From Spirochaetia bacterium (lineage in GTDB: Bacteria > Spirochaetota > Spirochaetia > B11-G9), in the NCBI GenBank assembly GCA_027859095.1, contig JAQIBN010000087.1, forward strand, positions 1-48,966: DNA of 48,966 nt, in the 5' to 3' direction. A program made the position numbers and the translations under genes. The notes below the pieces were generated by a model. The model was not told the origin of the DNA. It searched no databases and saw only the letters and a list, made by a program, of their open reading frames with translations. Of the stretch, positions 19,897 to 24,693 are shown piece by piece. How positions within the stretch are numbered: the stretch's first letter is position 1; each line of letters opens with the position of its first letter.

Positions 19897-20346
19897 TTAT
19901 TGTATTTTCACTAGCCATTTTTTATTTGCATCAAAGTTCTTACTTAAGACCATTTGGTGCACAACTGTAAGAAAATCTGGTATTTCGATGGTAATATCGT
20001 TTTTAATTTTTACCTGACACGCAAGTCTCATATTATTCAGTTTTTCCTGACGACTCATCCAAATTTCTTCTGTTGGAAGAATCATTCCTCCACCCTCAGG
20101 TACTTGAACTTTACAATAACCACAGCTTCCTTTTCCACCACATGAATTGGAAACATTAAATCCATTGTCATTAAGAGCTGTTAAAAGATTAATACCGCCT
20201 TCAACAGTGATCTCTTTAACTTCGTCACCCTCAAGAACGCTTATTTTACAATCTCCATAACTAACAAGGAGTTTGTCAGCTATTAAAAGTACAATTGTAA
20301 TTAAAAGAAGTAGTCCATTCATTACTAATACTGGTACAAAATTCAT
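19897..20346 (-). CDS. NqrF-like, truncated: TM helix + [2Fe-2S] domain only
   Basis: SCGGKGSCGYCKV...RLACQVKIKNDITIEIP then stop at 149 aa; no FAD/NADH domain. Confidence 0.88.
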   Translation of the reverse strand: MNFVPVLVMNGLLLLITIVLLIADKLLVSYGDCKISVLEGDEVKEITVEGGINLLTALNDNGFNVSNSCGGKGSCGYCKVQVPEGGGMILPTEEIWMSRQEKLNNMRLACQVKIKNDITIEIPDFLTVVHQMVLSKNFDANKKWLVKIQ

Positions 20347-20933
20347 TAGACAGTCACCATCCCGGCAAATCCAAGAAACGCTAGGGAAAGAATCCCTGCA
20401 ATTGTCATGATTATTCCCGGTCCCTTCATTCCCCTGGGAATATCTCCAACAAGGGCTAGCTTTTCATTTATGGCAGCAACTATAACTATTGCAATTATCC
20501 AGCCTATAGAAGCTCCAAAAGCAAATACTACAGTCTGAAGGTAGTTGTAAGATCTTATGACCATAAACAGTGAGACTGCAAGGACAGTACAGTTTACAGT
20601 GATTAATGGAAGAAATATTCCAAATGCTGCCTGGAGTACAGGAAAGAATTTTTCCATTATCATTTCAACTAACTGAACAGTTCCAGCAATTACAATTATG
20701 AATACAATATAGTAAATTAGCTCACTGTGGAGTGGTACCAGAATGTAATTGTAAATAGGCCAGTTTATAAGTGCTGTAAGTGTTACTACAAAAATAACTG
20801 CAAATCCCATTCCACTTGCTGTCCGGAGGCTCTTTGAAAGAGAAATAAATGGACACATTCCAAGAAGATATGTAAAAGCAATATTTTGTGTTAATACAGC
20901 AGCAATAAATATCATTAATAAATTAATAGCCAT
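20346..20933 (-). CDS. nqrE: NqrE/RnfA-like membrane subunit
   Basis: LGMCPFISLSKSLRTASGMGFAVIFVVTLTALINWPIYNYIL; conserved Cys in LGMCPF and VNC. Confidence 0.92.
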   Translation of the reverse strand: MAINLLMIFIAAVLTQNIAFTYLLGMCPFISLSKSLRTASGMGFAVIFVVTLTALINWPIYNYILVPLHSELIYYIVFIIVIAGTVQLVEMIMEKFFPVLQAAFGIFLPLITVNCTVLAVSLFMVIRSYNYLQTVVFAFGASIGWIIAIVIVAAINEKLALVGDIPRGMKGPGIIMTIAGILSLAFLGFAGMVTV

Positions 20934-20944
20934 AATAATCCCCC

Positions 20945-21568: not shown

Positions 21569-22143
21569 CAGTCTCCTTTAAAGGTGGAATTAAATATTTT
21601 GTAGTCATCATTAATGACCTTAATCAGTGCAATACACGACATTGTAGCACCTGTAATGCCATCAACATCTGTCTTGTTTGAAGATTTCCCAGCTCCAACA
21701 AGGATTAGTTCAGGATCAAATTGTTTACCAATAAAAGAATCCAGAAATTGCTTCTCTGTAATACGGCTTCCCAGTCCAGGAGTTTCCACCTGGGATTTTA
21801 TTCCAACAGCAGTGATAGTTTTTTTATCATCAGCCATTACCGCAACTCCAATAATGGGGCCTTGAAATCCTGAGCCCTCAAAAGGAAAGGCCATCTCTCC
21901 GGAAGAAACTTTGTAAATGGTCATTTCCGGATACACAATTGTACTAATATTATCTGTGAACACTTTCTCAATTGTTTCATCTGTATACTCAATTCCAAAA
22001 GTTTTCAAAATTGTACTTAATTCTTTTATTTTTTCATTTTTGGCAATCATGGGTTCTGTAAATGCATCTACACCAACAAGAGTTGTTGCCAGGATAGTTC
22101 CAAGAATTAGTACAAAGACAATCATCATTATTTTGTCTTTCAT
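21568..22143 (-). CDS. nqrC: NqrC/RnfG-like FMN-binding subunit
   Basis: VETPGLGSRITEKQFLDSF; DGITGATMS flavinylation motif. Confidence 0.92.
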   Translation of the reverse strand: MKDKIMMIVFVLILGTILATTLVGVDAFTEPMIAKNEKIKELSTILKTFGIEYTDETIEKVFTDNISTIVYPEMTIYKVSSGEMAFPFEGSGFQGPIIGVAVMADDKKTITAVGIKSQVETPGLGSRITEKQFLDSFIGKQFDPELILVGAGKSSNKTDVDGITGATMSCIALIKVINDDYKIFNSTFKGD

Positions 22144-23174
22144 ATCTTATTATTCCTATAAATTGTTTTTAAAACCATGTGATCTATGAGTGGATTTAAA
22201 CCGTTCATAAATATAATACTGAACATGACCCCTTCTGTATAACCAGCAAAGCTTCTTATAAGAAATGTTAATAATCCACATCCAAAACCATAGATATATT
22301 TACCTATTTTTGTTGTTGGTCCTGTAACAGGATCTGTTGCCATAAACATTGCTCCAAATAAGAGTCCACCGCTGAGGATGCTGAAAACAGGAGGGGCTAT
22401 AGCAGGGGATATCATATTTCCAATAAATGAAAATACTAATACTGTTCCAAGGTATGAAACAGGGATTCTCCAGTTGGATACTTTGGAGAGCATAAGAAAG
22501 ATTCCACCAACAATAATTCCAAGACTGAAAACTTCGCCCATACTTCCTGCATGCAGCCCTCTCAATAGATCCCAATAAGGTGTCATTTCTCCGGAAATCT
22601 GGAAAACACCAAGAGGGGTTGCAGATGTTATTACATCTGCGAAAGGTTCTTTCCATGATGCTGACATAAGTTGTGGAAATGCGATTGTAATAAACAGTCT
22701 TCCAACCAGAGCCGGGTTAAAGATATTTCTTCCTGTTCCGCCAAATATTTCCTTTCCAAAAAATGTTCCAAATATTGATCCGATTGCAACAGCCCATAAG
22801 GGTAGGGTTGGGGGCAGAACCAGTGCAAAAATAAGACCTGTTACAAGAAAACCTTCTTCAATTTCCCTTTCCCTTACTATTGCAAAAGATACTTCTACAA
22901 TCCCTCCGGCAATGTAGGATGTCATAATTATTGCTAAAGCATACAATCCGTAAAAATAGACTGCAGCTGCTGTTGCAGGCAGAAGGCCTATTATAGCAAA
23001 TGACATATATCTTTTTATTTCAATATGATCTTTAATATGTGGTGCTCCATGAGTTACTATACTGGTCCCAAATATTATCCCTTCCATTGTCTCAAAAATA
23101 GATTTAAATTTATGTAATGATTTTTTTTCTCCCATTTGATGAATGAGTTTTTGGACTTTACTCTGCTGCTTCAT
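22140..23174 (-). CDS. nqrB: NqrB/RnfD-like membrane subunit
   Basis: GKEIFGGTGRNIFNPALVGRLF; VITSATPLG flavinylation motif. Confidence 0.93.
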   Translation of the reverse strand: MKQQSKVQKLIHQMGEKKSLHKFKSIFETMEGIIFGTSIVTHGAPHIKDHIEIKRYMSFAIIGLLPATAAAVYFYGLYALAIIMTSYIAGGIVEVSFAIVREREIEEGFLVTGLIFALVLPPTLPLWAVAIGSIFGTFFGKEIFGGTGRNIFNPALVGRLFITIAFPQLMSASWKEPFADVITSATPLGVFQISGEMTPYWDLLRGLHAGSMGEVFSLGIIVGGIFLMLSKVSNWRIPVSYLGTVLVFSFIGNMISPAIAPPVFSILSGGLLFGAMFMATDPVTGPTTKIGKYIYGFGCGLLTFLIRSFAGYTEGVMFSIIFMNGLNPLIDHMVLKTIYRNNKI

Positions 23175-24693
23175 TAGTCTGCTCCTTTGGCTGCATAGGC
23201 GAGCAGCCCACTTGTTGGCGACCAGCCTTCAATCCAATAAGATTATAGGAATTGATAAAATCATCCTCTTTTACATAAGCATCTTCCAGAAGTTTTTTCT
23301 TCCCTTCTTTTAGATAAGCTGCAATTGGTATTTTTGCTGTACATACATAAGTACAAAGATTACAGTCTATACATTTAAATATTCCATACTGAACAGCAGT
23401 TTCATCCAGTCTGTCTCTTTCAACATATGGAAAAAGAACATTTGGAAGTATTCCTGCAGGACAAACATTTTGACAAAATCCACATGAAAGGCATGCTCTC
23501 TGTTCGCCATTTAAGTTTGTATTTATAGTCTTTTTAAAAGGCAGAATCTTTGCAAGAAATGTGTTAGAAAAAGAATCTTTTTTAAAACCTGGTTTTGCAA
23601 AAAACATCAGATCCTGTCCTCTTTTTTCCTCAAGAGCAATAAGTACTTCAGTATTTCTTCCAATAGGTGATTCAAAATTGGATTTTTTCCCTGTTAGAAC
23701 ACTGTTGTTGATAAAACGAATATCTTCCTTATCTTCCAGCAATAGTCTCCCTGTGGAAATATCTGATATAAGTGTTCCCACTTTTAAACTTAAGTGGATA
23801 TTATCATTAAAAACAGGCCCGGCCAAAGCCACTATTTTTTCTGTTAAAGGTTTTCCTTCTACTACTGCTTCATATACATGACAAACGTCCTGTATTCCAA
23901 GTATAACAATACCCTTATTTATACCCTTGTAATTAGCAGGAATATCAATATTTAGTACAGTTTTTGCAAGCACAGAGTCATGGCTCTGAGGATATTTTGC
24001 TTTAGTTTTATGAAATGAAATCGATAAATTATCTGAAACTGCATTATCAATAACCTGAAACCATGTAGAGGTATTTGTACTCATTGCTATGTGAATAGAG
24101 GCTTTTCCCATAATTTTAGCTAGAATGGACAGTCCTTCAGTAAACTTTTTTACACCATCATCCTTCAGGAATACAGAGACGTCAGGGTTAAAAACCTCGG
24201 AATCTGTTGAATGAATTATAATATGCTGAACATCCTCTGGTTCTATTACTGATGATTTGAACCCTGTGGGAATACCACTTGATCCAAGAGAACTTGTTCC
24301 GGATAAATAAATAATTTTCTCCAGATCTTTTCCACCTAGTTTTCTCCAGTCATTTGTAAAACCAGGTACTTTTTCCAATTCAGTGGAATCTGTGCTGGTA
24401 ATTTTGACAACACTAACCTGTTGTTCCAAATAATCCATTTTTTTAACAGATTCAACAATACCATTTACAGAGCTGTGTATAGGAGAAGAAACAGAATCAT
24501 CATCCTGCCATATAATCTGTCCTGCACTGACTTTATCCCCTGTTCGTACAAAGGGTTTTATCTTTGTGTCTGTTTTACTTAAGGGTATGTAGAGATGTTC
24601 TGGTAATACCTGAACGATGAGTTCCTGTGAGGGCTGTCCCTTAAACTGCTTTAATTCATACCCACCGGAAATTTTTCCATTTAGTAATTTCAT
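23158..24693 (-). CDS. NqrA/RnfC-like subunit with two C-terminal 4Fe-4S motifs
   Basis: Biotinyl-like N-domain; IVALAGPVFNDNIHLSLKVGT (NqrA-like); CLSCGFCQNVCP and CIDCNLCTYVCT. Confidence 0.9.
   Translation of the reverse strand: MKLLNGKISGGYELKQFKGQPSQELIVQVLPEHLYIPLSKTDTKIKPFVRTGDKVSAGQIIWQDDDSVSSPIHSSVNGIVESVKKMDYLEQQVSVVKITSTDSTELEKVPGFTNDWRKLGGKDLEKIIYLSGTSSLGSSGIPTGFKSSVIEPEDVQHIIIHSTDSEVFNPDVSVFLKDDGVKKFTEGLSILAKIMGKASIHIAMSTNTSTWFQVIDNAVSDNLSISFHKTKAKYPQSHDSVLAKTVLNIDIPANYKGINKGIVILGIQDVCHVYEAVVEGKPLTEKIVALAGPVFNDNIHLSLKVGTLISDISTGRLLLEDKEDIRFINNSVLTGKKSNFESPIGRNTEVLIALEEKRGQDLMFFAKPGFKKDSFSNTFLAKILPFKKTINTNLNGEQRACLSCGFCQNVCPAGILPNVLFPYVERDRLDETAVQYGIFKCIDCNLCTYVCTAKIPIAAYLKEGKKKLLEDAYVKEDDFINSYNLIGLKAGRQQVGCSPMQPKEQTNEAAE

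What the first reader, a model, noticed from the sequence alone, without database searches (positions are those of the whole stretch)
19897..24693. Nqr/Rnf hybrid with an NqrF lacking its FAD/NADH half
The operon encodes NqrA/RnfC-, B-, C-, D- and E-like subunits, but the last gene is only a TM helix plus the [2Fe-2S] ferredoxin domain of NqrF (149 aa). The paralog at 34012-35106 keeps the FAD and NADH domains (364 aa). No RnfB is present. The electron input for copy 1 must therefore differ from canonical Nqr (NADH via NqrF) and Rnf (ferredoxin via RnfB).
Basis: partly seen in the sequence, partly recalled or inferred. Interest (0 to 1): 0.8.

Follow-up and report, generated by a model that had tools for sequence, protein, structure and literature searches.

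The report
Sodium pump with swapped NADH head
A sodium-pumping respiratory enzyme in an uncultured spirochaete has lost its usual NADH-burning half and instead carries, in the same operon, the NADH/ferredoxin-burning head of electron-bifurcating enzymes, an arrangement also found on 32 genome contigs from several phyla that would add a third way of powering this ancient family of pumps.

Summary
Window 24693 to 19897 (minus strand) encodes a six-gene Nqr/Rnf complex whose last gene is a 149-aa membrane-anchored [2Fe-2S] ferredoxin, the N-terminal third of NqrF. It is not a frameshift: the family has near-constant length, with hundreds of members. The operon continues without a break (gaps of 21 nt or less) into NuoE/HydC-, NuoF/HydB- and HoxU/HydA-N-type genes, the NADH-oxidising "Bfu" core of electron-bifurcating enzymes, without any hydrogenase domain. 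Among related loci with at least 1.5 kb of downstream DNA, 26/26 with short F carry these genes next and 0/43 with full-length F do. In seven loci short F is fused to NuoE. Short F is one clade, yet it sits on Nqr cores from three places in the core tree (one clade rejected, p-AU 9e-59), so F and Bfu seem to travel as a cassette. The A subunit has also lost its FMN/NADH motifs, so the only recognisable nicotinamide site is in BfuB, whose five Fe-S sites are intact. Best model: a Na+-motive menaquinone reductase fed by NADH, probably together with ferredoxin. A new variant joining two known families; no description found in the papers searched. Function rests on genomics only.

The parts
23158..24693 (-). 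A subunit: RnfC/NqrA-like, 511 aa, keeps 2x[4Fe-4S] ligands, has lost the RnfC FMN/NADH motifs
22140..23174 (-). B subunit: NqrB/RnfD-like, 344 aa, covalent-flavin motif SATPL, NqrB-like features near the N terminus
21568..22143 (-). C subunit: NqrC/RnfG-like, 191 aa, FMN_bind, flavinylation motif DGITGATM
20945..21568 (-). D subunit: NqrD/RnfE-like, 207 aa, both Cys of the shared membrane [2Fe-2S] cluster
20346..20933 (-). E subunit: NqrE/RnfA-like, 195 aa, both Cys of the shared membrane [2Fe-2S] cluster
19897..20346 (-). Short F: TM helix + [2Fe-2S] ferredoxin (C69, C75, C78, C110), 149 aa, no FAD/NADH half
19429..19875 (-). NuoE/HydC/HoxE-like = BfuC, 148 aa, C1 [2Fe-2S] ligands 74, 79, 115, 119; fused to short F in other phyla
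19094..19429 (-). DRTGG-domain protein (accessory/regulatory)
18170..19090 (-). CBS + HATPase protein (accessory/regulatory)
17841..18179 (-). Second DRTGG-like protein (accessory/regulatory); recognised as a relative of the first one by sequence in the neighbour parse
17091..17831 (-). PHP-domain protein (accessory)
16669..17091 (-). HATPase-domain protein (accessory)
16268..16663 (-). Stand-alone thioredoxin-like [2Fe-2S]-type protein related to the HydB N-terminal domain (three Cys only); present at nearly all short-F loci
14472..16268 (-). NuoF/HydB-like = BfuB, 598 aa: NADH/FMN domain, ligands for B1, B2 (C438, T476, H525, C531, C536), B3/B4, B5
13867..14475 (-). HoxU/HydA-N-like = BfuA, 202 aa: A1, A2 and A4 cluster ligands; A3 ligands lost; no H-cluster domain
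13002..13865 (-). Polyprenyl diphosphate synthase, next gene at 1 nt; consistent with a quinone acceptor
34012..35106 (+). Comparison: full-length NqrF of copy 2 (Fer2 + FAD + NAD), no Bfu genes next to it

Best explanation
Copy 1 encodes a Na+-(or H+-)motive menaquinone reductase made of an Nqr/Rnf membrane core (A-E) and an electron-input cassette of short NqrF plus a BfuCBA head (NuoE-, NuoF- and HoxU-type). Proposed path: NADH is oxidised at the FMN of BfuB, probably with reduced ferredoxin entering through the B3/B4 clusters (electron confurcation). Electrons leave through BfuA (A1, A2, A4), or possibly through BfuC C1, to the [2Fe-2S] of the membrane-tethered short F. They then follow the usual route: D/E membrane [2Fe-2S], FMN on C, FMN and riboflavin on B, menaquinone, with coupled ion export. 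Shown by sequence: the gene content, the 1:1 association, the F::NuoE fusions, co-transfer as a cassette, the intact cofactor ligands, and the loss of all other recognisable NADH motifs. Inferred: physical assembly, direction of electron flow, ferredoxin as co-donor, menaquinone as acceptor, and the pumped ion.
For: (1) Fifteen co-directional genes, 24693 to 13867, with gaps of 21 nt or less or overlaps. (2) Loci with at least 1.5 kb downstream: 26/26 short-F have Bfu genes next, 0/43 full-F do; 31/31 short-F if contigs with about 1 kb downstream are counted. (3) Short F::NuoE fusion in seven loci, with domain coordinates; all 120 best database hits to one fusion carry Fer2 + NuoE (PF00111 + PF01257), and all eight Cys are invariant in 45 of them. 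(4) Core tree (B+D+E): short-F loci in three places, one clade rejected, p-AU 9e-59; short F itself is one clade, support 99/97; the BfuB of L120 nests among spirochaete BfuBs although its core lies with full-F cores. (5) A lost the FMN/NADH motifs in all short-F loci where the region is present. (6) BfuB has ligands for B1-B5 including the His that Schut et al. 2022 report as absent from non-bifurcating homologues. (7) BfuA lacks A3 and A5, the published 'Type 2' layout for heads with extra client subunits. (8) A polyprenyl synthase follows at 1 nt and MenA/MenG-type genes lie nearby.
Against: No biochemistry, structure or expression data. The Bfu proteins could in principle act as a separate soluble enzyme that only shares the operon, though fusion and co-transfer argue against that. 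Confurcation is uncertain: in four planctomycete-type loci (L099, L106, L109, L110) the B3/B4 region of BfuB is replaced by a GltD-like FAD module, so ferredoxin may not be a universal co-donor. The core-tree contrast rests on only three independent pairs, and the F tree on 136 columns. An AlphaFold model of the fusion was poor (pLDDT 62.5, pTM 0.37) and gave no interface information.
Confidence: 0.82

Rival explanations
1. The same complex, but the Bfu head works as a plain NADH dehydrogenase like the complex I N-module, without ferredoxin: NADH to FMN to short F to core to menaquinone.
For: NADH alone has enough potential to reduce menaquinone (established knowledge). Some planctomycete-type BfuBs have lost B3/B4, so the cassette can persist without the ferredoxin entry clusters.
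Against: In the window and most relatives all clusters that Schut et al. 2022 associate with bifurcation (B1-B5 with the His ligand, C1) are kept. Non-bifurcating homologues characteristically lack B2-B5.
Confidence: 0.35
2. The Bfu proteins form a separate soluble NADH/ferredoxin oxidoreductase that happens to share the operon, and short F takes electrons from free ferredoxin or another donor.
For: The cassette carries the accessory genes (DRTGG, CBS-HATPase, PHP, HATPase) that also sit beside an [FeFe]-hydrogenase operon in another genome of the phylum (L083), so it may derive from such an operon. The genome has other HydB genes.
Against: Short F::NuoE fusions, strict association and co-transfer of F and Bfu between cores. 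BfuA has no catalytic domain of its own to use electrons.
Confidence: 0.09
3. Short F is a sequencing or recent genetic frameshift of a full NqrF.
For: The downstream sequence was not checked against raw reads. A genuinely split NqrF (140 + 237 aa) does occur in L163, without Bfu genes.
Against: The same 149-aa protein occurs in many genomes down to about 60% identity, with a conserved C-terminal tail. The DNA after the stop encodes NuoE, not an FAD domain.
Confidence: 0.005
4. The cassette runs mainly in reverse: the ion gradient drives electrons from menaquinol through the core and short F to Bfu, to make NADH and reduced ferredoxin.
For: Bfu enzymes are described as reversible and Rnf as running in reverse. 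A type III SQR with DsrC/DsrE, a possible source of quinol, lies next to the operon here and in other loci.
Against: The gradient needed to lift electrons from menaquinol to ferredoxin potential would be large. No direct evidence.
Confidence: 0.1

Closest known systems
Na+-NQR (NqrA-F)
   Same: Subunits A-E, covalent-flavin motifs on B and C, D/E Cys for the shared [2Fe-2S], NqrB-like features of B, F with TM helix + [2Fe-2S] ferredoxin.
   Different: F lacks the FAD/NADH half. A keeps 2x[4Fe-4S], whereas NqrA is reported to have no redox cofactors.
RNF (RnfABCDGE)
   Same: The A subunit is RnfC-like with 2x[4Fe-4S]; homologous membrane core.
   Different: No RnfB. A has lost the FMN/NADH motifs. 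NqrF-type ferredoxin and Bfu head instead.
Nuo-Bfu (Schut et al. 2022, PMC9304861), a predicted complex I with a BfuABC head
   Same: Same idea: a BfuABC head replacing the NADH input of an ion-pumping quinone reductase.
   Different: The client is an Nqr/Rnf pump rather than a complex I membrane arm. BfuA is of the short Type 2 layout. A membrane-tethered short NqrF is the link. That paper lists Nuo-, Mbh-, Fdh-, Wor- and other Bfu types, but 'Nqr' does not occur in it.
HydABC [FeFe]-hydrogenase
   Same: HydB, HydC and HydA-N homologues; similar accessory genes.
   Different: No H-cluster domain; A3 ligands lost from the HydA-like protein.
NQR/RNF-like systems of the flavinylation survey (PMC8238504)
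   Same: Partial NQR/RNF clusters with altered electron input.
   Different: Those are NqrB/RnfD fused to an NAD-binding domain with a single electron path; here the full core is kept and the head is NuoF-type.

Membership tests
Na+-NQR | NqrF with [2Fe-2S], FAD and NADH domains | tested here: not met
   F matches TIGR01941 only at 5-128/405; no FAD or NAD domain
Na+-NQR | NqrA-like subunit without redox cofactors | tested here: not met
   A keeps all 8 Cys of 2x[4Fe-4S]
Na+-NQR | Covalent-flavin motifs on B and C; D/E Cys | tested here: met
   SATPL, DGITGATM, C34/C117 and C27/C115
Na+-NQR | NqrB-type N-terminal segment (quinone-site region) | tested here: inconclusive
   Weak alignment to NqrB residues 21-87 (15 bits) and conserved HxxDxxxxKR, absent from this genome's RnfD; an HMM for RnfD also matches above its cut-off
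Na+-NQR | Na+ as the pumped ion | not testable with these tools
   Needs biochemistry
RNF | RnfB in the operon | tested here: not met
   No RnfB gene in the operon; one lies in a separate canonical rnf operon on C288
RNF | RnfC FMN/NADH site | tested here: not met
   Motifs GGATFP and ECEP replaced
Bfu family (electron-bifurcating core) | BfuB with clusters B1-B5, including the His ligand of B2 | tested here: met
   All ligands present; C438/T476/H525/C531/C536 in 7t2r numbering
Bfu family (electron-bifurcating core) | BfuC with C1 [2Fe-2S] | tested here: met
   Cys 74, 79, 115, 119
Bfu family (electron-bifurcating core) | Type 2 BfuA: lacks A3 and A5, extra client subunits | tested here: met
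   12 Cys for A1, A2 and A4 present, A3 ligands lost, no A5 domain
Bfu family (electron-bifurcating core) | Actual electron bifurcation or confurcation | not testable with these tools
   Needs enzymology
Respiratory complex I | NuoA-D and NuoH-N membrane and connecting subunits in the operon | tested here: not met
   None in the operon; NuoD/NuoH-family genes elsewhere in the genome lie in [NiFe]-hydrogenase- or Mrp-type clusters with no NuoE/F/G gene seen there

The most novel reading that the evidence does not exclude
A third electron-input type for the RNF/NQR pumps: a ferredoxin- and NADH-confurcating Bfu head feeding an Nqr core through a truncated NqrF. It would couple confurcation to menaquinone reduction and Na+ export in one complex, and would be exchanged as a cassette between Nqr cores across phyla.
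Probability: 0.5. Interest if true: 0.87.

Novelty: new variant of a known kind. Interest (0 to 1): 0.78.

Why it matters
The RNF/NQR pumps are known with two electron inputs, RnfB (ferredoxin) and NqrF (NADH). This operon and its relatives point to a third, in which the pump borrows the head of complex-I/HydABC-type enzymes. It would show that the input module of these pumps is exchangeable at the boundary between E and F, would extend the Bfu family to an Nqr client, and would offer a testable single-complex coupling of ferredoxin + NADH to sodium export in menaquinone-using anaerobes. Genomes with it are probably annotated as having an ordinary NqrF or stray NuoE/NuoF genes, so models of their energy metabolism would be wrong.

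Tried and rejected
Frameshift: rejected (constant length and wide conservation). RnfB elsewhere serving copy 1: unlikely, since the only RnfB seen is in a complete canonical rnf operon. FAD/NADH half of NqrF encoded separately: apart from the third Nqr operon on C301 (43% identity, full F), the own-genome search with full NqrF found FAD/NAD-type matches only at 25-32% identity on unrelated contigs, one of them (C205) in a hydrogenase-type cluster, and none beside short F at other loci. A complex I elsewhere using the NuoEF module: NuoD/NuoH-family genes exist but in hydrogenase- or Mrp-type clusters; not exhaustively excluded. Several independent truncations of NqrF: considered because short F sits on three core lineages, but the F tree makes short F one clade, so exchange of a cassette fits better. 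Structure of the short F::NuoE fusion: the AlphaFold model was too poor to use. Viral contigs: no relative of short F. Literature: seven full-text searches and passages of six papers gave no description of this arrangement; only open-access PMC papers are held, so absence is not proof.
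Full report
WHAT IS THERE. On the minus strand, 24693 down to 19897, six genes encode the subunits of an Nqr/Rnf complex in the order A, B, C, D, E, F. The last gene is 149 aa and matches NqrF only over its first third (TIGR01941 positions 5-128 of 405; Pfam Fer2; no FAD or NAD domain), while copy 2 in the same window has a 364-aa NqrF with all three domains.

IT IS NOT A FRAMESHIFT. The same gene, ending at the same place, occurs in separately assembled genomes of the genus (93-98% identity) and in another family of the phylum (58-60%). In a search of 5.8 billion proteins, 320 hits were found and nearly all of the 120 listed are about 149 aa. The family has a conserved tail after the ferredoxin domain (consensus NKKFDxNKRWLVTI). 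In the window the stop codon is followed after 21 nt by the ATG of the next gene.

THE OPERON GOES ON. Downstream, without a gap over 21 nt, come a NuoE/HydC/HoxE homologue (19429-19875), five accessory genes (DRTGG, CBS-HATPase, DRTGG-like, PHP, HATPase), a small thioredoxin-like protein (16268-16663), a NuoF/HydB homologue (14472-16268, 598 aa), a HoxU/HydA-N homologue (13867-14475, 202 aa) and, 1 nt later, a polyprenyl diphosphate synthase. The HydB homologue is closest to the solved BfuB of an electron-bifurcating [NiFe]-hydrogenase (7t2r, 824 bits) and to the HydB of bifurcating HydABC hydrogenases. No H-cluster domain is present in the HoxU-like gene; the genome's only [FeFe]-hydrogenase match is on contig C52 with its own HydB.

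ASSOCIATION. A scan of one genome per species for short-F-like motifs gave 80 loci. Where at least 1.5 kb of downstream DNA is available, 26 of 26 short-F loci have Bfu genes immediately downstream, and 0 of 43 full-F loci do; counting contigs with about 1 kb, it is 31 of 31. L104, with 142 bases downstream, is uninformative. L163 carries a split full NqrF and no Bfu genes, so mere breakage of NqrF does not bring them. L119, with a full F, has HydABC-type genes only on the opposite strand. The full-F loci are those closest to the query motifs, not a random sample. By record title the short-F loci are labelled Spirochaetota, Planctomycetota, Lentisphaerae and Fibrobacterota, and database hits to fusions carry names from Planctomycetota, Latescibacterota, Poribacteria and Desulfobacterales; these MAG labels are unverified.

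FUSION. In seven loci (L098, L099, L105, L109, L111, L113, L114) one polypeptide of about 305-325 aa contains short F followed by NuoE, and no separate NuoE gene was found. All 120 best database hits to such a fusion carry both Pfam domains, and the eight ligand Cys are invariant in 45 aligned members. This is the strongest single sign that short F and the Bfu head act together.

CASSETTE TRANSFER. On a tree of B+D+E, short-F loci fall in three places: a clade of 24 with copy 1; L106/L115; and L120, which lies among full-F cores near copy 2. Holding them together is rejected (p-AU 9e-59). Yet short F itself is one clade (99/97), and the BfuB of L120 nests among spirochaete BfuBs. The simplest reading is that F and Bfu move as a cassette with a boundary between E and F. 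Three independent pairs are too few for a significant sign test.

COFACTORS. In the window BfuB has all ligands: B1 (455, 458, 461, 501), B2 (C438, T476, H525, C531, C536 in 7t2r numbering), B3/B4 (eight Cys) and B5 (11, 16, 48, 52); BfuC has C1 (74, 79, 115, 119). Schut et al. 2022 (PMC9304861) report that the B2 His is conserved in bifurcating enzymes and absent in non-bifurcating ones, and call BfuA proteins without A3 and A5 'Type 2', feeding through A4 to extra subunits; the window's BfuA has A1, A2 and A4 only. B and C keep their flavin motifs and D/E their Cys. The A subunit has lost the RnfC FMN/NADH motifs but keeps both [4Fe-4S] sites, also in full-F relatives, so this is not specific to short-F loci. 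Taken together, the only recognisable NAD(H) site in the operon is BfuB.

MECHANISM (inferred). NADH, probably with ferredoxin, to the BfuB FMN and clusters, to BfuA (or BfuC), to short F, to D/E, C, B and menaquinone, with ion export. The tethered ferredoxin domain of NqrF is thought to be flexible and to approach the D/E cluster; here it would move between the Bfu head and D/E. Confurcation is the least certain step: four planctomycete-type BfuBs have a GltD-like FAD module in place of B3/B4.

NOVELTY. The passages read of the 2025 RNF/NQR review, the 2014 Nqr evolution paper, the 2022 Bfu survey and the flavinylation survey, and seven full-text searches, do not describe this arrangement. 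Predicted Nuo-Bfu and Mbh-Bfu complexes are direct conceptual precedents, so it is a new variant that joins two known families, not a new kind of machine.

Noticed in passing
window 10488-12911 (+): Regulator, type III sulfide:quinone reductase (NF049943, selenoprotein subtype, above cut-off), DsrC/TusE and DsrE genes next to the operon; the SQR-DsrC-DsrE set also lies beside the cassette in L087 and L116 (DsrE at the contig edge in L088).
   Followed up: partly
window 24993-27183, 28576-29590 and 35143-37400: Proteins of about 150 aa with no Pfam match, each with a histidine kinase and/or response regulator nearby, flank both Nqr operons; similar trios flank other short-F and full-F loci.
   Followed up: partly
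window 37572-38390 (-): 272-aa putative lipoprotein with no Pfam or NCBIfam match but a flavinylation-like motif (DAVTGAT).
   Followed up: no
L099:10982-14140, L109:10033-13116, L106:3597-7361, L110:684-4484: Planctomycete-type BfuB with a C-terminal GltD/NfnB-like FAD module in place of the B3/B4 ferredoxin clusters; in L106 and L110 NuoE is also fused at the N terminus.
   Followed up: partly
L006 (own genome contig C301): A third Nqr-type operon (B-F with full NqrF) with no A gene next to it; with copy 1, copy 2 and Rnf the genome has four Nqr/Rnf-type complexes.
   Followed up: partly
L097:6344-9669: Short-F locus with HydB and HoxU but no NuoE gene recognised between F and HydB.
   Followed up: no
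L105:1566-9702: After the fusion and the thioredoxin-like gene no HydB follows; the next frames look like an IS3-type transposase and unrelated genes, so the locus is interrupted or misassembled.
   Followed up: partly
window 1893-4715 (-): Several tyrosine-recombinase-like frames at the left edge of the window.
   Followed up: no
P0110: A short F is reported on a contig of 10.1 Mb in one source, unusually long for a bacterium.
   Followed up: no
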